Origin: Pseudomonadota bacterium
GTDB taxonomy: Bacteria; Pseudomonadota; Alphaproteobacteria; Rhizobiales; Beijerinckiaceae
Length of the DNA: 7,220 nt
Reading direction: 5' to 3'
NCBI GenBank assembly: GCA_023423995.1
Contig: JAFAEL010000080.1
Coordinates: 1-7,220, forward strand
The position numbers and the translations under genes were made by a program. Below the pieces are notes generated by a model. The model saw only the letters and a list, made by a program, of their open reading frames with translations, made no database searches and was not told where the DNA came from. This document shows positions 1 through 7,220 of this stretch, in pieces. Position 1 is the first letter of the stretch; every line of letters begins with the position of its first letter.

Positions 1-1267
1 CCTTCATGGCGGCAGCGCCGCGATTGGCGATGTATGCCTCGCCGAGATCGTACATGAACCCCGTCGCGGAGGTCGGGATGACGCCGAGCCGCTTCATGCG
101 CTCCCGGATGGCCGGCGGCACGCAGCAGCTGTGCTCCACCCGCATCCGGTGATCCTGTGACGGGTGGGCCGTCAGCGCCGCCTCGAACGCGTCGAGCACG
201 AAATCCACGCCGCGGTCGCCGACGCCGTCGGCGCAGACCGTCAGGCCCGCGGCGGTCGCCTCGGTCACGCGCCGGGTGAAATCCTCGGGGCTATACAGGA
301 GCATGCCCGTGTTGTTCTCGGGCTCGCCGACGATCGGCTTGCCGATATACGGCTCGTAATAGGCGGCGGTGCGGCCGCTGGTGCTGCAATCGGGGCACCA
401 CTCCACGCCGACGATGCGAACCCACTCGTCTCCGAAGCCCGAGCGGATGCCGCTGCGAATGACGGACTCGACGAGCCCGTCTTCCTTGCCGCTGACGATG
501 ACGCCGATGCGCATCGGGAGCCGCCCCTCGCGCCGGAGCGTCTGATAGGCGCGGATGCCGTGCGATGTGGTGAGCGAGTTGTGGAGGGACGTAATTCCGT
601 AGCTCAGGAATTCCGCGAAGACGGTTCCGAGGCCGGCCGCGAAGTCGTCCGCCGTATAGTCGCGCATGATCTCGTCGATCACCGCATAGGCGGCGTTCTC
701 GCGCAGCAGCCCGGTCGGCTCGCCCGTTTCCGGATGACGATCCGTGCGGCCGAAGGGCGGGTCCGGATAGTCGCCCCCGAGCTTCGCGCGCCGTAGCGCC
801 TCGCTGCTGGCCACGCCGAGATGGCAATCGGTGCGGAACACGAAGACGGGCCGCCCGCCGCCCGCCTGGTCGAGTTCCTCGCGCGTCGGATAGCCGCCCA
901 GCTTGTTGTCGTCGTAGCGGAAGCCCGCACACCAGGCATCGGCCGGGAGTGTGGCCGCGCGCTCGGCGATGATCGACAGGACCTCGTCCTTCGACCTCAC
1001 CTTCGGGTAGCTGAAATCCGCCCAGCGATGGATGCGGGCGCCGTAGAGATCCGCATGCACGTGGCATTCGACGAAGCCGGGAAGCACGGTCCGGCCGCCC
1101 GCGTCGATGCGCACGGTCTCCGGACCCGCCCAGAGGGCGATCTCGCTCGCCGTCCCGACGGCCGCGATGCGGCCGTCCTTGATGGCGAGCGCCTCGTCGA
1201 AGCGCCCTTCCTCGACCATCGCGGCAACCTTGCCGTTCTCGATGATCGTATCAGCGAAGACCTGCAT
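1..1267 (-). CDS. YtcJ-like amidohydrolase (amidohydrolase_3 family), C-terminus cut by window edge
   Basis: The first 422 residues are visible; YtcJ-type proteins usually run to about 540, so roughly the last 120 lie beyond the left edge. These are cytoplasmic metal-dependent hydrolases of amide, carbamate or related bonds on small molecules. Family marks: an N-terminal beta-sandwich segment (IKDGRIAAVG near 29-38), the LPGFVECHVH motif at 62-71 giving the HxH metal pair H69/H71, RTDCHLGVASSEAL at 145-158, the SGRTAAYYEPY stretch at 297-307, and RVEH at 376-379. Two positions differ from the usual pattern: E289 stands where a metal-bridging Lys is expected (four residues before the conserved D293), and D347 stands where the HAIGD His is expected (ADGVGD, 346-351). 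No signal peptide is seen. The ATG at 1267 has a weak GAGAG-type ribosome site nine bases upstream and starts 14 bases after the solute-binding gene, so the two are probably co-transcribed. Family is confident; substrate is unknown. Confidence 0.9.
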   Translation of the reverse strand, partial: MQVFADTIIENGKVAAMVEEGRFDEALAIKDGRIAAVGTASEIALWAGPETVRIDAGGRTVLPGFVECHVHADLYGARIHRWADFSYPKVRSKDEVLSIIAERAATLPADAWCAGFRYDDNKLGGYPTREELDQAGGGRPVFVFRTDCHLGVASSEALRRAKLGGDYPDPPFGRTDRHPETGEPTGLLRENAAYAVIDEIMRDYTADDFAAGLGTVFAEFLSYGITSLHNSLTTSHGIRAYQTLRREGRLPMRIGVIVSGKEDGLVESVIRSGIRSGFGDEWVRIVGVEWCPDCSTSGRTAAYYEPYIGKPIVGEPENNTGMLLYSPEDFTRRVTEATAAGLTVCADGVGDRGVDFVLDAFEAALTAHPSQDHRMRVEHSCCVPPAIRERMKRLGVIPTSATGFMYDLGEAYIANRGAAAMK

Positions 1268-1281
1268 GCGGTGACGCTCTC

Positions 1282-2394
1282 TCAGGACGCGACGGTGTCC
1301 AGGAAGCGCTTGCTTACCGGAATGATATTCTCGGCGTACCAGTCGCCGTTCTGCACCACCATCAGCTTCCTGTTGTCGGGATGGGACGGGTTCCGGGCCG
1401 CGAGCGCGGGATCGTACTGACCCTCGGCGGCCGGGTTCGCGGGCCCGTTGCCGAGCAGCTTCAGCAGCTCGATCTGTCCGGCCGGATCCTGCATGGAGGC
1501 CAGGAATTCCATCGCGAGCTTCTTGCCGGCCGGGTTGTCCTTCATCACCGACATGACGCCGGGATGCAGGAGGCCGCCGTTGAAGGTGTACTTCACCCGA
1601 CCCTTGGTCTCCTGCTCGAGCAGGTTGGCGCGGGTGTGCCAGATCTGGCCCATGACGACCTCGCCGTCGCGGAAGACCTGCTGGCTGCTGGCGCCCGTAT
1701 CCCAGAGCACGAGGTGCTCCTTGATGGACTTGATCTTCCCGAGGCCACGATCGACGTCGAGCGGATAGAGCTTGTCGAGCGGAACGCCATCGGCGAGGAG
1801 CGCCGCCTCGAGCGCGCCCGCCATGTACTTGTACATGACGCGCTTGCCCGGGAACTTCTTGACGTCGAAGAAGTCGGCCCAGCTCTCAGGCTGCTTTCCG
1901 CCGAGCGCCTTGGTGTCGTAGGCGAGGACCGACCCGTACAGGAACACCGAGGCGCCCCACTTGTAGTCGAGGCCGGGCAGCGTCTTGGCGCGGTCGAAGA
2001 TCGAGTAGTCGATCTCTTCCAGCACGCCGAGCTTGCCCAGCGAAGCCTGCGTCCCGACACCGCCATCCAGGATGTCCCAGGTGACGTTCTTCGACTGCAC
2101 CATGGCGCGAGCGCGCCCCGGGCTCGGCCCGCTGCCATCGAGGACCACCGGAATGCCGGACTTCTTCGTATAGGGCTCGCACCAGGCCTTGCGGTACGCG
2201 TTCTCGGCGTCGCCGCCCCACATGGCGAAGACGATCTCCTTGGCGGCAGCCTGCGCGGACCCGGCGCCGCCGACCCCGGCGAGGCCCAGCAGCGCCCCGA
2301 GCTGAAGAACGCGCCGGCGATCGAGCGAACCGCGTTCGAGCCGCTCAGCCGCGCAGAGGACGGCGTCTTCTAGATACGTCTGCACCCTGGTCAT
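1282..2394 (-). CDS. Tat-exported ABC-type solute-binding protein, PotD/PotF-like
   Basis: This 370-residue periplasmic binding protein would deliver a small solute to an ABC permease. The N-terminus has about 24 residues before a twin-arginine-type signal (LDRRRVLQLGALLG; Arg at 26-28), a hydrophobic Ala/Gly/Leu stretch, and a likely signal peptidase site after AQA at residue 49. The mature part has the solute-binding fold typical of the spermidine/putrescine-like group: a first strand IVFAMWGG, WDILDGG at 106-112 followed by a GVLEEID segment, LAYDTKALGGKQPESWADFFD around 157-177, and KFPGKRVMY. The ATG at 2394 is preferred over the upstream TTG at 2412 because GGAGG sits six bases before it, and that sequence lies inside the TTG-started extension. 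Polyamine, amino-acid-like or other cationic ligands are possible, but the ligand cannot be read. No permease or ATPase gene is in view, although they could lie left of the amidohydrolase. Confidence 0.88.
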   Translation of the reverse strand: MTRVQTYLEDAVLCAAERLERGSLDRRRVLQLGALLGLAGVGGAGSAQAAAKEIVFAMWGGDAENAYRKAWCEPYTKKSGIPVVLDGSGPSPGRARAMVQSKNVTWDILDGGVGTQASLGKLGVLEEIDYSIFDRAKTLPGLDYKWGASVFLYGSVLAYDTKALGGKQPESWADFFDVKKFPGKRVMYKYMAGALEAALLADGVPLDKLYPLDVDRGLGKIKSIKEHLVLWDTGASSQQVFRDGEVVMGQIWHTRANLLEQETKGRVKYTFNGGLLHPGVMSVMKDNPAGKKLAMEFLASMQDPAGQIELLKLLGNGPANPAAEGQYDPALAARNPSHPDNRKLMVVQNGDWYAENIIPVSKRFLDTVAS

Positions 2395-2405
2395 TCCCCG
2401 CCTCC
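2395..2405 (-). promoter_or_regulatory. Strong ribosome binding site fixing the solute-binding protein start
   Basis: On the minus strand GGAGG is followed by six bases and then the ATG at 2394. This is the best Shine-Dalgarno sequence in the window, and it argues against the in-frame TTG at 2412 as the true start. Confidence 0.75.
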
Positions 2406-2416
2406 GAGGCAAGTGT

Positions 2417-2533: not shown

Positions 2534-2543
2534 TGCCATATCA
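2534..2543 (+). promoter_or_regulatory. Operator-like site (copy 1 of TGSCATRTCA)
   Basis: Reads TGCCATATCA on the plus strand and matches the consensus fully. It overlaps the molybdoenzyme stop codon (2541-2543), so part of the match is imposed by that codon. It lies 116 bases from copy 2 and could be an auxiliary site or a chance match. Confidence 0.3.
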
Positions 2544-4970
2544 GCGCACGGAGGATCCGTGCTGGATGGCGCGCCAGACTGCGTCAGGTGTAGCGGGCAT
2601 CTCGATGGCGTCGACGCCGCGTTCCGCGAGCGCATCGAGGAGGGCTCCGACGATGGCGGGCGGCAATCCGACGGAGCCAACCTCGGCGCAGCCCTTCGCC
2701 TTCAGGGGGTTGTGCTCGCAGGGCGTCGAATGCGTCAGCACTTCGAAGGCCGGCAGGTCGCCGGCGCGCGGAAGAGCGTAGTCCATGAAGGAGCCGCTGA
2801 GGAGCTGACCGGCCTCGTCGTGCAGGGTGCGCTCGATCAGCGCCTGGCCGACACCCTGGGCAAGGCCGCCATGGATCTGCCCCTCGACGATCATGGGATT
2901 GATGATCGTTCCGAGGTCGTCGACCGCGACGATGCGCAGGATGGCGGTCTCGCCGGTCTCCGGGTCGACCTCGAGCTCGCAGACGTGACAGCCACCCGGA
3001 TAGGTCCAGTTCTGCGGGTCGTAATAGGCCGTCTCGTCGAGGCCCGGCTCGATCTCCTCCACGGGAAAGAGGTCGCCGCCATAGGCGGCCTTCGCGATCT
3101 CTCGGAACGAGACGGAACGATCGGTGCCCGCGACCGAGAAGCGCCCCGCCTCGAACACGACATCGGCGGCGGCGGCCTCGAGGACATGCGCGGCGATGCG
3201 CTTCGCCTTCTCGACCACCTTGTCGAGCGCCTTCACGAGCGCGGAACCGCCCACCACCAGGGAGCGCGAAGCGGCCGTGCCGCGGCCGAACGGCACCTGG
3301 TCCGTGTCGCCCTGCACGATCCTGACCGTGTCCGGCGAAACGCCGAGCCGATCGCACACGATCTGCGCAAAGGTCGTCTCGTGCCCCTGGCCGTGGCTGT
3401 GCACGCCGCTGAACACCGTGACAGTCCCGCCCGGATGCACCCGGACCTGCGCCGATTCCGAGCGGCCCGACCGAGCCCCGAGCCGGCTCGCGACGCGGGA
3501 GGGCGTGCCGCCGGCGATCTCCACATAGGTCGAGATGCCGATGCCGCGGAGCCGCCCGCGCGCGCGGCTCTCCTCCTTGCGGGCCGGAAAGCCCGCCCAA
3601 TCGACCGCATCGAGCGCGAGCGCGAGCGTCGCCTCGTGATCCCCGGAATCGTATTCCAGCCCGAGCGGTGTCCGGTACGGAAACTCTTCGCGCCGAATGA
3701 AATTGCGCCGCCGCAGTTCGACGCGGTCGATCCCCGCCTCGCGCGCGGCCTTGTCGATCAGCCGCTCCAGCACGTAGGTCGCCTCGGGCCGGCCGGCGCC
3801 GCGATAGGCGTCGACGCTGCAGGTATTGGTGAAGGCGAGGACGACGTTGCAGTAGATGGCGGGCGTCTTGTACACGCCCGCGAGCAGCGGCGCGTAGTAA
3901 TAGGTCGGGATCGCGGTCGCGCCGCTCGTCAGGTAAGCGCCGACATTGGCGTAGGTCTTGACCCTCAACCCCAGGAACGTACCGTCCGCGGCGAGCGCCA
4001 GCTCCGCCTCTGTCCGATGATCGCGCCCATTCGCATCCGTGAGGAAGGATTCCGAGCGGTCCGCCGTCCAGCGGATCGGCCGCGCGAGCCGGCCCGCCGC
4101 CCAAGTGATCGTCGTCTCCTCCGGATAGACGAAGATCTTGGCCCCGAAGCCGCCGCCGACATCGGGCGAGACCACCCGAAGGCTGCTCTCCGGAATGCCG
4201 AGCACGGCGTTGGCAAGCGTGCTGCGCACCGCATGCGGGTTCTGGCTGGTGGTATAGAGCGTGTAGCTGCCGCTCCCGGGGTCGAACAGCGCCAGCGCCG
4301 AGCGTGGCTCCATCGGAGCCGGGACGAGGCGGTTGTTCACCAGGGTGATCGACGTGACATGGGCTGCGCGGGCGAAGGCCGCATCCGTCGCGTCGCGGTC
4401 GCCGATCTCCCAGTCGCAGCAGATGTTCGCCGGGATCTCGTCCCAGACCAGCGGGGCGCCATTCTGCGTCGCGCAGAGCGCGTCCGTCACCGCCGGAAGC
4501 GGCTCGTACAGGACCTCGACGGCCTCCGCGGCCGCCCTCGCCTCTTCCAGGCTCTCCGCGATCACCACGGCGACCGGATCACCCTGGTGGCGAACCTTGT
4601 TCACCGCGAGCGGAAGGCGCGGCGGCTCCGCCATCGGCCTGCCATCGCGGCCCGTGAGCGACCAGCCGCACGGGATGCTGCCGACGCCTGCGGCGTGAAG
4701 ATCGCGGCCCGAATAGACCGCCGCGACGCCCGCCATGCCTCGCGAGCGGCCGGCATCGATCCGAAGGATCTTCGCATGGGCGTGCGGGCTGCGGACGAAG
4801 ACGGCGTGAAGCTCGCCCTCCGCCTTCTGGTCGGCGACATAGCGCCCGCGCCCCGTGACGAAGCGCAGATCCTCGCGCCTGAGCACGGACTCGCCGATGC
4901 GAAAGGGTATCTCGCGCGAGGTCACCGCATCTTCGCCGGGGATCGATCCAGGGCGAGCGTTCAGGAGCAC
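2541..4970 (-). CDS. Form II CoxL-like molybdenum hydroxylase large subunit (xanthine dehydrogenase family)
   Basis: An 809-residue molybdopterin-cytosine-dinucleotide-binding catalytic subunit of the xanthine oxidase family, which hydroxylates carbon centres with water as oxygen donor. Order: an a/b hammerhead domain from about 38 to 155 (VTGRGRYVAD, VRSPHAHAKI), then the two molybdopterin-binding domains. Visible signatures are GGGFGAK at 272-278, AYRGAGR at 388-394, HGQGHET at 526-532, GRGTAASRS at 562-570, and KGCAEVGSVG at 759-768 with E763 in the catalytic Glu position. AYRGAGR is the form II signature; true aerobic CO dehydrogenases carry AYxCSFR, so CO is not the expected substrate. 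The small [2Fe-2S] and medium FAD subunits, usually encoded alongside, are absent within the window. Start: GTG at 4970 has AGGGTGA just upstream and a promoter-like sequence about 40 bases away. GTG at 4925 (MTSREIPFRIGESVLRRED, 794 residues) fits the family's usual N-terminus equally well. Confidence 0.92.
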   Translation of the reverse strand: MLLNARPGSIPGEDAVTSREIPFRIGESVLRREDLRFVTGRGRYVADQKAEGELHAVFVRSPHAHAKILRIDAGRSRGMAGVAAVYSGRDLHAAGVGSIPCGWSLTGRDGRPMAEPPRLPLAVNKVRHQGDPVAVVIAESLEEARAAAEAVEVLYEPLPAVTDALCATQNGAPLVWDEIPANICCDWEIGDRDATDAAFARAAHVTSITLVNNRLVPAPMEPRSALALFDPGSGSYTLYTTSQNPHAVRSTLANAVLGIPESSLRVVSPDVGGGFGAKIFVYPEETTITWAAGRLARPIRWTADRSESFLTDANGRDHRTEAELALAADGTFLGLRVKTYANVGAYLTSGATAIPTYYYAPLLAGVYKTPAIYCNVVLAFTNTCSVDAYRGAGRPEATYVLERLIDKAAREAGIDRVELRRRNFIRREEFPYRTPLGLEYDSGDHEATLALALDAVDWAGFPARKEESRARGRLRGIGISTYVEIAGGTPSRVASRLGARSGRSESAQVRVHPGGTVTVFSGVHSHGQGHETTFAQIVCDRLGVSPDTVRIVQGDTDQVPFGRGTAASRSLVVGGSALVKALDKVVEKAKRIAAHVLEAAAADVVFEAGRFSVAGTDRSVSFREIAKAAYGGDLFPVEEIEPGLDETAYYDPQNWTYPGGCHVCELEVDPETGETAILRIVAVDDLGTIINPMIVEGQIHGGLAQGVGQALIERTLHDEAGQLLSGSFMDYALPRAGDLPAFEVLTHSTPCEHNPLKAKGCAEVGSVGLPPAIVGALLDALAERGVDAIEMPATPDAVWRAIQHGSSVR

Positions 4971-5002
4971 GAGTTCACCCTGTAACCGAGCGAAGCTTTG
5001 AC

Positions 5003-5012
5003 TGCCATGTCA
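5003..5012 (+). promoter_or_regulatory. Operator-like site (copy 3 of TGSCATRTCA)
   Basis: Reads TGCCATGTCA and continues GACACT, giving the 13-base match to copy 2. It covers the proposed -10 of the molybdoenzyme promoter. Relative to the gene it controls it points the opposite way from copy 2, which argues that the similarity is an operator and not a shared promoter element. Confidence 0.5.
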
Positions 5013-5036
5013 GACACTCTCGTACATAGACGTCAA
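5007..5036 (-). promoter_or_regulatory. Candidate promoter of the molybdoenzyme gene
   Basis: On the minus strand TTGACG (5036-5031; five of six consensus bases) is followed after 18 bases by TGACAT (5012-5007; three of six). Transcription would begin near 5000, leaving about 30 bases to the GTG at 4970. Operator-like copy 3 overlaps the -10. Confidence 0.35.
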
Positions 5037-5093
5037 CTCGCTCAACAGACGCTTCGGAGAGCGGACGTATGCCCCCGTTTGGCGCCGGAACGC

Positions 5094-5103
5094 TGGCATA
5101 TCA
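5094..5103 (+). promoter_or_regulatory. Operator-like site (copy 4 of TGSCATRTCA)
   Basis: Reads TGGCATATCA, a full match to the consensus. It sits in the middle of the divergent region, 91 bases from copy 3, far from either proposed start of transcription. It might act as a distal site for looping. Confidence 0.4.
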
Positions 5104-5283
5104 AGTCTCGTTTTCCGCGATCCGGAATGCGATTGCCCGGCGTGGCCCAAAAGCGAGGTTCGTGACGATGGCCCGGATAGCTGGCGCCCGGGGCGACCTA
5201 CGCGGCTGATGTACCAGGCCAAGCGCCTGCAAAACCGCAGCTTCCCGCCCGGAGAGCCGATCCGGAATTGCCTGTGTCTCTAG

Positions 5284-5333
5284 TTGATGGGAGCGATTTT
5301 GCGCTTTGACATGCAATCACTCAGGCTTACTTT
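5284..5333 (+). promoter_or_regulatory. Candidate promoter(s) of the double GntR regulator gene
   Basis: Two readings are possible. TTGATG (5284-5289) and TGACAT (5307-5312) are 17 bases apart, the latter identical to the -10 proposed for the molybdoenzyme. Alternatively a perfect TTGACA at 5306-5311 pairs with TACTTT at 5328-5333 over 16 bases. Either way operator-like copy 5 (5307-5316) overlaps a promoter element, consistent with autoregulation. The second reading would rule out the in-frame TTG at 5306 as a start codon. Confidence 0.35.
5307..5316 (-). promoter_or_regulatory. Operator-like site (copy 5 of TGSCATRTCA)
   Basis: On the minus strand this reads TTGCATGTCA, one mismatch from consensus. 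It overlaps the regulator's candidate promoter elements and lies 55 bases upstream of copy 6, in the opposite orientation. Confidence 0.4.
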
Positions 5334-5361
5334 CGGCGCCGAGGCCAGCCGACACCATCCC

Positions 5362-5371
5362 TGGCATGTCA
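5362..5371 (+). promoter_or_regulatory. Operator-like site (copy 6 of TGSCATRTCA), over the upstream start codon candidate
   Basis: Reads TGGCATGTCA, a full match. The ATG within it (5366-5368) is one candidate start of the regulator. If translation really begins at 5474, this copy lies in the leader, where bound protein could block transcription. Confidence 0.4.
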
Positions 5372-6793
5372 GCGTGGAGCAAACCCGAAAGCCCTGAGGC
5401 GCTCGCTTCCCGAGCGAGTGACGGCTTCTTAGCAAGTTCCTCGGCGCCTGGTCCCATCTTTTCCTCCCAAGCAATGCCCGAGACCCTCGCCGCCAAAGCG
5501 TATGACGCGATCGAACACCTGATCGTCGAAGGCTCCATCCCGCCGGGAGATCTCCTGTCGGAAGTCTCCCTCAGCCAGCAGATCGGGATCGGGCGAACGC
5601 CTGTGCGGGAGGCGCTCCAGCGGCTCGAGCGCGACCAGCTGATCGTCGTGGAGCCCCGGCGCGGTGTCCGCGTGACGGACATCGACCGGAAGCGCTTCGA
5701 GCAGGCGATGGAGGTCCGCGAGGCGCTCGAGCCGGTGATGTCGCGGCTCGCCGCCCTTTCTGCCTGTCGCGGCCAGCGCCTGGAACTGAGGGAGTTGGCG
5801 CAGGCCATGATGGAGGCCGCGGACGGCGGCTCATCCTCGGGGCTCCTGGACGTTGATTTCCGGTTCAAGCGGGTGGTGGCGGAAGCCTGCGGCAACCCGC
5901 TGCTGACCACGGCGATCCGTCCCCTGCATTCGGTGTCCCGGCACTTCTTCTTCCGACATGCGCGCACCTCGCAGCGCTCGGTCGCGCTCGCCCATGCGGC
6001 CCTCATGAATCTCATCGCCAGCGGAGACGCCGCCGGCGCCGAGGCCGCATCCGAGCGCTTCCTCCATTCGATCCGTCGCTTCGCGAAATCCGTCCGCGCG
6101 CGCCGGGACGCAGGACCGGATCAGGGCTCGGCCCAGCACCGCCCGGACGCGGACATGACTCTCGCTGGCCAAGCCTTTCGGGCTATCGAGAGCCTCGTCG
6201 TCTCCCAGACCTACCCCCCGGGGGAGGTGCTTTCGGAACTCCGGCTGAGCGCCGAGCTCGGGATCGGCCGGACGCCCGTGCGGGAGGCGCTGCAGCGCCT
6301 CTCGGCCTTCCACCTGGTCACGATCCAAGCTCGCCGAGGAGCCGTCGTCGCCGAACTCGACCGCTACGACGCCTCGACGCTGAACGAAGCCCGCCTCCCG
6401 CTCGAACAGCTGCTCTCGCGCCTCGCCGCGCGCCGCTGCACCGACCGGCAGCGCGCCGAATTGAAGCGGCTGGGAGTCGAGTGGGTCCGGGCCGCCGAAC
6501 GTGGCCCGACGGCAGAGATCATCGCGATCGACGCCCGGATGAAATCCCTCGTCATCGCGGCCGCCGCGAACCCGTTCCTCGAACGCGCCATCGCGCCGCT
6601 TCACGCCATGGCGCGACGGTCCTATTTCGGACGGGCAACCATTCCGGACGCCGACGTCGCAGCGGCGCAAGCCGAACTTCTCGACAGGATCGCCGCAGGA
6701 GACGAGAACGCCGCCGCTCTCGCCTCGGTCCGGTTCGTCGCCGAGGCGATCAGGGTCGTGCGCGGCGCGATGCGGGAACCGCAGCCCGCCTGA
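5366..6793 (+). CDS. Tandem-duplicated GntR/FCD transcriptional regulator (two complete FadR-type units in one protein)
   Basis: 475 residues, about twice the usual 220-250 of FCD-class GntR regulators. Order: Ala/Ser-rich leader 1-37; winged helix 1 about 41-107; FCD 1 about 112-242; charged linker 243-264; winged helix 2 about 266-332; FCD 2 about 337-467. The halves align without gaps at a 225-residue offset, and GIGRTPVREALQRL is identical in both (74-87 and 299-312). Usual FCD metal ligands are Asp plus three His. FCD 1 has D164, K168 in place of the first His, H210 and H234. FCD 2 has D389, K393, and Q435 and A459 at the other two positions. It probably represses the divergent molybdoenzyme operon and itself, with an organic-acid-like ligand; this is inferred from context. 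The start is uncertain: ATG 5366 and ATG 5474 (MPETLAAKAYDAIE, a typical GntR beginning) both lack a clear ribosome site, and TTG 5306 is less likely. Confidence 0.92.
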   Translation: MSAWSKPESPEALASRASDGFLASSSAPGPIFSSQAMPETLAAKAYDAIEHLIVEGSIPPGDLLSEVSLSQQIGIGRTPVREALQRLERDQLIVVEPRRGVRVTDIDRKRFEQAMEVREALEPVMSRLAALSACRGQRLELRELAQAMMEAADGGSSSGLLDVDFRFKRVVAEACGNPLLTTAIRPLHSVSRHFFFRHARTSQRSVALAHAALMNLIASGDAAGAEAASERFLHSIRRFAKSVRARRDAGPDQGSAQHRPDADMTLAGQAFRAIESLVVSQTYPPGEVLSELRLSAELGIGRTPVREALQRLSAFHLVTIQARRGAVVAELDRYDASTLNEARLPLEQLLSRLAARRCTDRQRAELKRLGVEWVRAAERGPTAEIIAIDARMKSLVIAAAANPFLERAIAPLHAMARRSYFGRATIPDADVAAAQAELLDRIAAGDENAAALASVRFVAEAIRVVRGAMREPQPA

Positions 6794-6831: not shown

Positions 6832-7220
6832 TCAGATCACGAGCGTCGCGGACCGCGACCGGACGGCGTGCAGCAGCGAGAATGCCGTGGAGGCCGAGGT
6901 CTTCGGATTTGCGCTCGCCCGGCCGGCCATGACGACCGTCATGTCGCCGATCTCGCTCGAGGCTTCGATGGTGCCGGTATTCCCCGAAGCCGCCGGATCG
7001 GCCACGAGCCGGACCTCCGTGCGGTCGAGACCCAGCCCGGCGAGCGCGACGGTTGCGGCTAGGTTGGCGTTCTTCGGGTAGCTCAGCGCGGCCTCTCGCG
7101 CCGAGCCTTTGAAGAAAACGGTGCGCTCGCGCAGGCCCGCCAGATCGACCGCTTTCTCGGCGGGGGTGCCGCGCCAGGCAAGCGGTGGCTTGGTGGACGT
7201 GTAGGTGACCGATACTAGCC
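6832..7220 (-). CDS. L-aspartate dehydrogenase-like protein (NadX/DUF108 family), N-terminus beyond window
   Basis: The C-terminal 128 residues are visible, about half of a typical 260-270-residue protein; the NAD(P)-binding Rossmann part lies beyond the right edge. Family marks, numbered from the first visible residue: TKPPLAWRGTPAE at 9-21, FKGSAREAALSYPKNANLAATVALAGLGLD at 36-65 (notably the YPKNAN block), VRLVADP at 69-75, and NPKTSASTAFSLLHAVR at 104-120. NadX converts L-aspartate to iminoaspartate, which can feed quinolinate and NAD synthesis. In place of the family's usual N-x-H-x-I after ADP, this protein has N80-T81-G82-T83-I84, so the expected active-site His is Gly. It may therefore be a paralogue with a different substrate or weak activity. 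It converges on the regulator gene, stop codons 38 bases apart, so it is not in that transcript and may belong to another operon. Confidence 0.85.
   Translation of the reverse strand, partial: LVSVTYTSTKPPLAWRGTPAEKAVDLAGLRERTVFFKGSAREAALSYPKNANLAATVALAGLGLDRTEVRLVADPAASGNTGTIEASSEIGDMTVVMAGRASANPKTSASTAFSLLHAVRSRSATLVI

What the first reader, a model, noticed from the sequence alone, without database searches (positions are those of the whole stretch)
5366..6793. Two full GntR/FCD regulators fused in one polypeptide
FCD-class GntR proteins normally have one winged helix and one FCD domain and act as dimers. Here both modules occur twice in one uninterrupted frame. The repeat is exactly 225 residues with no gaps (L41/L266, D164/D389, H210/Q435, H234/A459), and 36 of 67 aligned residues match across the DNA-binding parts. 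The protein could act as a built-in pseudo-dimer, or as a dimer bridging two operators. Nucleotides around 5584 and 6259 (675 apart) show the shared block diverged mostly at silent positions, so the duplication looks maintained, not recent.
Basis: partly seen in the sequence, partly recalled or inferred. Interest (0 to 1): 0.8.

Follow-up and report, generated by a model that had tools for sequence, protein, structure and literature searches.

The report
Two-in-one GntR repressor with built-in dimer
One gene here encodes two complete copies of a bacterial switch protein that normally works in pairs; the double protein likely arose by duplication of the switch beside the same set of genes, and is predicted to fold on itself and grip the same ten-base DNA site that its single-copy relatives would bind as pairs.

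Summary
One open frame holds GntR-FCD-GntR-FCD with a gapless 225-residue repeat (36/67 identical in the DNA-binding part, 85/200 overall). It is no sequencing accident: a 99% identical protein stands in Enterovirga sp. CN4-39, and nine more full-length two-module proteins and one fragment were found, one on a Rhodobacterales plasmid. In trees the ten N halves form one clade and the ten C halves another, in nearly the same order: one old fusion.

New here: four orthologous operons in other genomes carry a one-module regulator at the same place. These join N and C halves in one clade (100/96) against 21 other FCD proteins. All four loci hold two copies of a 10-bp palindrome, TGACATGTCA. The window's intergenic region holds the motif too (rank 1 of 1024 palindromes), as does the plasmid's (rank 2). 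AlphaFold predicts one packed body (pTM 0.90); a distant member is less certain (0.66). Best reading: a single-chain pseudo-dimer repressor. My paper searches found no description of this architecture. New variant of a known kind.

The parts
5366..6793 (+). Two-module GntR-FCD regulator, 475 aa as given; likely start at 5474 (439 aa)
   Evidence: public copy P0001 starts at the equivalent of 5474
5486..5683 (+). HTH1 (winged helix, aa 41-106)
   Evidence: Pfam PF00392; R77, T78, R81, G100 in 10 of 10 N halves
5705..6067 (+). FCD1 (aa 114-234), six predicted helices
   Evidence: Pfam PF07729; model of P0001
6104..6142 (+). linker between modules (P0001 211-223); pLDDT under 50 at 211-213 and 217-223
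6161..6358 (+). HTH2 (aa 266-331)
   Evidence: Pfam; DNA-contact positions kept in 10 C halves (R77 equivalent 9 R, 1 K)
6380..6742 (+). FCD2 (aa 339-459), six predicted helices
5003..5012 (.). predicted operator TGCCATGTCA (1 mismatch), XDH-GntR intergenic region
5094..5103 (.). predicted operator TGGCATATCA (2 mismatches)
5307..5316 (.). weak predicted operator TGACATGCAA (2 mismatches); may just be part of a -35-like TTGACA
5362..5371 (.). predicted operator TGGCATGTCA (1 mismatch), over the ATG at 5366
2534..2543 (.). predicted operator TGCCATATCA (2 mismatches), upstream of the solute-binding gene, overlapping the XDH stop codon
2541..4970 (-). xanthine-dehydrogenase-family molybdenum large subunit, divergent from the regulator; likely target
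   Evidence: Pfam/NCBIfam; close relatives beside one-module and plasmid two-module regulators
1282..2412 (-). ABC-importer solute-binding protein (SBP_bac_8); likely target
2..1267 (-). amidohydrolase (Amidohydro_3), cut by window end; likely target

Best explanation
The gene encodes one chain with two complete GntR-FCD modules that likely folds into an intramolecular pseudo-dimer and is predicted to repress its own gene and the divergent genes for a xanthine-dehydrogenase-family enzyme, an importer binding protein and an amidohydrolase by binding TGACATGTCA-like 10-bp sites until an inducer binds. Shown: the architecture, its conservation in ten proteins, the one-module regulators at four orthologous operons, and the shared palindrome. 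Inferred: each HTH reads one half-site of a palindrome, as the two subunits of a one-module dimer would. Inferred: the operon substrate or an early product is the inducer and binds one or both FCD pockets. Untested: binding, repression, inducer and oligomeric state. The likely origin is duplication of the one-module regulator of this same operon, with the operator kept.
For: Two full modules in ten full-length proteins including this one. N halves one clade (98/93), C halves one clade (100/99), N + C + the four operon-linked one-module regulators one clade (100/96) against 21 other FCD proteins. The solute-binding protein has 68-72% identical relatives in 4 of 397 genomes, and all four loci carry a one-module regulator next to that gene, the best match to the two-module profile in each of those genomes. 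TGACATGTCA with at most 1 mismatch: 8 sites in the 4 one-module intergenic regions, 2 in the window's 504-bp region, 2 in the plasmid's 360-bp region; expected in window 4971-5483: 0.016. DNA-contact residues are kept in both halves, matching the contacts named for Atu1419 and FadR (PMC7797058, passages). One-body model of P0001, pLDDT 91.6, pTM 0.90. In one one-module locus an operator lies 5 bp past the -10 of a promoter-like match.
Against: The distant member P0010 gives pTM 0.66 and pLDDT 80.3. No model coordinates or error matrix were available, so the HTH-HTH geometry was not seen. N and C as exclusive sisters is unresolved (support 82/15; holding either half with the one-module regulators costs 0.11 log units, AU p 0.395 and 0.396), so fusion of two paralogues is not excluded. 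None of the window's five sites is a perfect palindrome, against 3 of 8 in one-module loci. The motif was first seen by eye in the output, which showed the one-module, window and plasmid sequences together, so its ranks are not blind tests. One further site each lies outside the intergenic region in L038 (16324) and in the plasmid stretch (8131). No sigma-70 promoter match was found in window 4900-5500 or the plasmid region. The plasmid's solute-binding protein is only 25% identical to the window's and its amidohydrolase shows no match; only XDH is close there (67%).
Confidence: 0.58

Rival explanations
1. Covalent half-tetramer: two chains pair to give four modules that hold two distant palindromes and loop the DNA, as the Atu1419 tetramer does.
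For: Each locus examined has at least two sites: 97-119 bp apart in the four one-module loci, 164 bp in the plasmid, several in the window. Atu1419, an FCD relative, is a tetramer binding two 10-bp palindromes 190 bp apart, with loops seen by microscopy (PMC7797058, passages).
Against: Paired sites occur with one-module regulators too, so they do not point to the fusion. Chain-chain contacts were not modelled. It can be true together with the pseudo-dimer.
Confidence: 0.25
2. The C module is a passenger or a locked arm; two chains dimerise through their N modules only.
For: C halves are less conserved than N halves (FCD 0.43 against 0.48 mean pairwise identity; HTH 0.60 against 0.64); in the plasmid group (pRR4, P0010, P0011) the C-half FCD has E for K168 and L for R118 in 3 of 3.
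Against: HTH2 keeps the DNA-contact positions in 10 of 10 (one R to K), and the C module is predicted with high confidence in P0001 with a high whole-chain pTM.
Confidence: 0.08
3. Two-input switch: the halves read different operators or bind different inducers.
For: FCD halves of one protein are 19-38% identical, below their HTHs at 42-53%; the pocket position H210 differs between halves (H/Q in the window).
Against: In the window the recognition helix is the same in both halves (GRTPVREALQRL), and C halves elsewhere differ from it by at most two residues. Only one palindrome type stands out. Different ligands with one shared operator remain possible.
Confidence: 0.08
4. Assembly or sequencing artefact (collapsed tandem genes or missing stop).
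For: None found.
Against: A 99% identical, not identical, protein stands in a separate public record, with nine more full-length two-module proteins.
Confidence: 0.01

Closest known systems
Atu1419 (VanR-group FCD regulator, Agrobacterium fabrum; PDB 6z74, 6za3)
   Different: One module per chain, four chains; operator ATGTATACAT; zinc site Asn137, His141, His192, His214. Here the first His position is Lys (Glu in three C halves), the third is Phe or another non-polar residue, and the second is His in 2 of 20 halves.
One-module regulators of the orthologous operon (L038, L039, L103, L104)
   Same: Same operon, same operator, one clade with both halves; share K168
   Different: One module; keep H210 (4 of 4)
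PmiR (P. aeruginosa, 7xp0), McbR/YncC (E. coli, 4p9f) and the Ralstonia protein 3ihu
   Different: One module per chain; 20-30% identity
Double histone fold proteins (PMC13088155, start of abstract seen in a search listing)
   Same: Two copies of a dimer-forming fold in one chain forming a pseudo-dimer
   Different: Unrelated fold; an analogy only

Membership tests
GntR superfamily | N-terminal GntR winged helix (PF00392) | tested here: met
   Two stretches, 109.6 bits against cut-off 27
FCD subfamily of GntR | FCD effector domain (PF07729) behind the winged helix | tested here: met
   Two stretches, 112.3 bits against cut-off 24.3
FCD subfamily of GntR | One module per chain (usual architecture) | tested here: not met
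   Two modules in this and nine other full-length proteins
VanR group of FCD | Six-helix FCD (FadR group seven); definition recalled | tested here: met
   Six helices in each predicted FCD of P0001; a model, not a structure
Metal-binding FCD regulators (TM0439, LldR, Atu1419) | Asp/Asn plus three His around the metal | tested here: not met
   D164 kept in 10 N and 10 C halves; first His position K in 10 of 10 N and 7 of 10 C (E in 3); second His kept in 2 of 10 N and 0 of 10 C; third position (F232/F457) His in 0 of 20 halves (positions from the TM0439 and 7xp0 alignments, and passages)
FCD regulators | Dimer (or tetramer) in solution | not testable with these tools
   No complex prediction or bench data
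PhnR-type phosphonate regulator (TIGR03338) | NCBIfam curated score | tested here: not met
   125.6 bits against cut-off 271.5

The most novel reading that the evidence does not exclude
A natural single-chain GntR repressor: an obligate-dimer regulator was duplicated in place at its own operon, kept its operator, and became a covalent pseudo-dimer whose two effector pockets diverged, so that one chain per operator, and perhaps one inducer per chain, throws the switch. The surviving one-module orthologues at the same operon give a ready before-and-after pair.
Probability: 0.4. Interest if true: 0.7.

Novelty: new variant of a known kind. Interest (0 to 1): 0.56.

Why it matters
GntR regulators are one of the largest bacterial families and are treated as homodimers (recalled). 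A stable two-module lineage beside one-module orthologues that stand at the same operon with the same palindrome lets one test directly what covalent linkage buys: tighter binding at low copy number, freedom of the two pockets to diverge, or two-signal sensing. It also gives a testable operator for a group for which the papers searched describe none.

Tried and rejected
Asymmetric sensor from metal ligands: rejected. H210 is kept in 2 of 10 N halves, and H234 is not at a metal position; alignment to TM0439 puts the third metal His on F232.

Widespread architecture: not supported. Two-module matches in 0 of 397 and 0 of 390 genomes at strict cut-offs, with at most four first-look candidates per genome scored in the rows shown; query A1 did find the plasmid protein at 3.6e-141. 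Genome contigs scan: 6 loci, none two-module. Viral contigs: none. Plasmids: 1621 records match; one single-piece two-module hit among the 15 rows listed, and the same record among 10 rows with P0002; the unlisted rows were not seen.

Asymmetric operator as proof of a pseudo-dimer: only a hint. Seven of seven sites in two-module loci and five of eight in one-module loci are imperfect, which is too few to tell (counted by me).

Typical GTNNNAC-type GntR sites: none useful. Solved structure with both modules in one chain: none in the rows, which cannot exclude one. Operator in print: 18 papers hold the string, 15 listed, none of these by title on bacterial GntR regulation. Plasmid copies of the one-module regulator: no match at 1e-20.

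Rows dropped: one search left out eight of the 46 rows (seven long-branch singles and the fragment P0012) and added seven singles, four others having no HTH match; one search also dropped L068 and L069 and added L103 and L104. In one search, 22 of the 48 loci L050-L097 gave no HTH match, likely because minus-strand matches were not turned; 17 of these were tried again, five (L070, L089, L090, L092, L096) were not. L005 and L006 were in no tree.

Full report
What is there. The frame 5366-6793 is open and encodes GntR-FCD-GntR-FCD. At a 225-residue offset 36 of 67 residues match in the HTH part and 85 of 200 overall; half against half gives E 2e-49 without gaps. The public copy P0001 from Enterovirga sp. 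CN4-39 is 99% identical and starts at the equivalent of 5474. The ATG at 5366 lies inside a predicted operator, so the shorter protein is more likely (inference).

How common. Three protein searches returned 8, 3 and 17 hits at their cut-offs, query proteins included; the candidates were capped. Two-module ones are P0001-P0006, P0009, P0010, P0011 and a 320-aa fragment, P0012. The plasmid search adds one on conjugative plasmid pRR4-35_4 of Pseudohalocynthiibacter aestuariivivens. Genome searches gave 0 of 397 and 0 of 390, with a working control on the plasmid record. N-half and C-half queries in 190 genomes of the same class hit 21 and 20 genomes; by the listed places I saw no genome with two adjacent modules. 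On this evidence it is rare, and most of the proteins found come from metagenomes.

Origin. In the trees drawn, and by support, N halves and C halves each form one clade with nearly the same internal order; the clearest difference is that the window and P0004 change places. This points to one fusion, inherited whole. Searching for the operon rather than the regulator gave the key comparison. The window's solute-binding protein has 68-72% identical relatives in 4 of 397 genomes of the order of G059. That order was reached through G001, the genome of Arsenicitalea aurantiaca; its name, Rhizobiales or Hyphomicrobiales, is recalled. Each stands beside an amidohydrolase 68-69% identical to the window's and a one-module GntR-FCD gene; two of the four also have the XDH-family gene (67 and 64%) in the fetched stretch, the other two do not. 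The four one-module regulators join the N and C halves in one clade (100/96) against 21 other FCD proteins. Whether N and C are each other's closest kin is unresolved (82/15; AU p about 0.4 for the alternatives), so duplication in place is likely but fusion of two close paralogues is not excluded.

The locus. In the window the regulator is divergent from the genes for an XDH-family large subunit, a solute-binding protein and an amidohydrolase. On the plasmid the two-module gene sits among an amidohydrolase, a complete ABC importer, an M20 hydrolase and an XDH family. Its XDH is 67% identical to the window's; its solute-binding protein is only 25% and its amidohydrolase shows no match. Of the ten XDH neighbourhoods fetched, two carry the one-module regulator (L038, L039); eight show no related regulator in the fetched piece. 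The genes suggest uptake, oxidation and hydrolysis of a small nitrogen compound (inference).

Operator. I saw TGACATGTCA by eye in the intergenic sequences printed, window and plasmid included, and then scored it, so the ranks are not blind. Each of the four one-module intergenic regions has two sites with at most one mismatch, 97-119 bp apart; the motif ranks first of 1024 palindromic 10-mers there. In the window's 4971-5474 it also ranks first (2 sites with at most 1 mismatch, 4 with at most 2), and second in the plasmid's 360-bp divergent region. Expected numbers in 4971-5483 are 0.016 and 0.152. The whole window has five sites with at most 2 mismatches (1.26 expected): four between XDH and the regulator, and one at 2534 that overlaps the XDH stop codon and so was not counted in 2413-2540 (0 there). 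Elsewhere, L038 has one more site (16324) and the plasmid stretch one more (8131) at 1 mismatch. Background: 10 sites in 568,566 bases of other loci; four of these are the L038/L039 sites again under other names and two are one place counted twice. In L039 one operator follows a TTGACA-18-CAAAAT match by 5 bp, a place fit for repression; no promoter match was found in the window or plasmid regions. The site at 5307 may be only part of a -35-like TTGACA.

Protein. DNA-contact positions named for Atu1419 and FadR (passages of PMC7797058) are kept in both halves: R77 in 10 of 10 N and 9 of 10 C (one K); T78, R81 and G100 in all 20. The FCD metal site is gone. Position 168 is K in 10 of 10 N halves, 7 of 10 C halves and 4 of 4 one-module operon regulators, but in 1 of 21 other FCD proteins (15 N, 4 D, 1 S). 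Position 210 is His in 21 of 21 others and 4 of 4 one-module regulators, yet in 2 of 10 N and 0 of 10 C halves. Position 232 is His in none of the 45 rows. The Lys may replace the metal's charge for an acidic ligand (speculation).

Fold. AlphaFold2 on P0001 with 13 sequences gives pLDDT 91.6 and pTM 0.90, with a short loose linker at 211-223. A pTM this high for a two-module chain suggests fixed packing of the modules; I had no coordinates or error matrix to view. P0010, of the plasmid group, gives 80.3 and 0.66. The ranges listed each fall within one module; one search gives no ranges, and its targets are chains of 198-272 residues.

Mechanism. The same recognition helix in both halves and the same isolated 10-bp palindromes as in one-module loci make it likely that one chain replaces one dimer. 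Sites at least 55 bp apart do not look like a double-length operator. A chain pair looping two sites, as Atu1419 does, is the main rival and is compatible with the pseudo-dimer.

Known or not. No paper on GntR-FCD-GntR-FCD proteins turned up in the listings; the library lacks most subscription journals. Public records that name P0001 and P0002 call them only GntR family transcriptional regulators.

Noticed in passing
window 2541-4970; L038-L042: The XDH-family large subunit (motif AYRGAGR; recalled as form II, not CO dehydrogenase) has no 2Fe-2S or FAD partner gene in the window or in the fetched pieces of L038-L042, while six of the eleven neighbourhoods looked at (L043-L048) and the plasmid have both.
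   Followed up: partly
L011/L049: The conjugative plasmid pRR4-35_4 carries a two-module regulator, a second XDH-family gene and a histidine-utilisation cluster in one 31-kb stretch.
   Followed up: no
window 6832-7218 (-): C-terminal part of an aspartate dehydrogenase gene, convergent with the regulator and cut by the window end.
   Followed up: no
L041 3536: TTACATGTCA inside the stop-to-stop frame of an amidohydrolase gene beside an XDH relative in G118, a genome without a related regulator at 1e-30.
   Followed up: partly
FCD position 210 of the window numbering: A His invariant in 21 of 21 other FCD proteins and 4 of 4 one-module operon regulators is lost in 8 of 10 N and 10 of 10 C halves.
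   Followed up: partly
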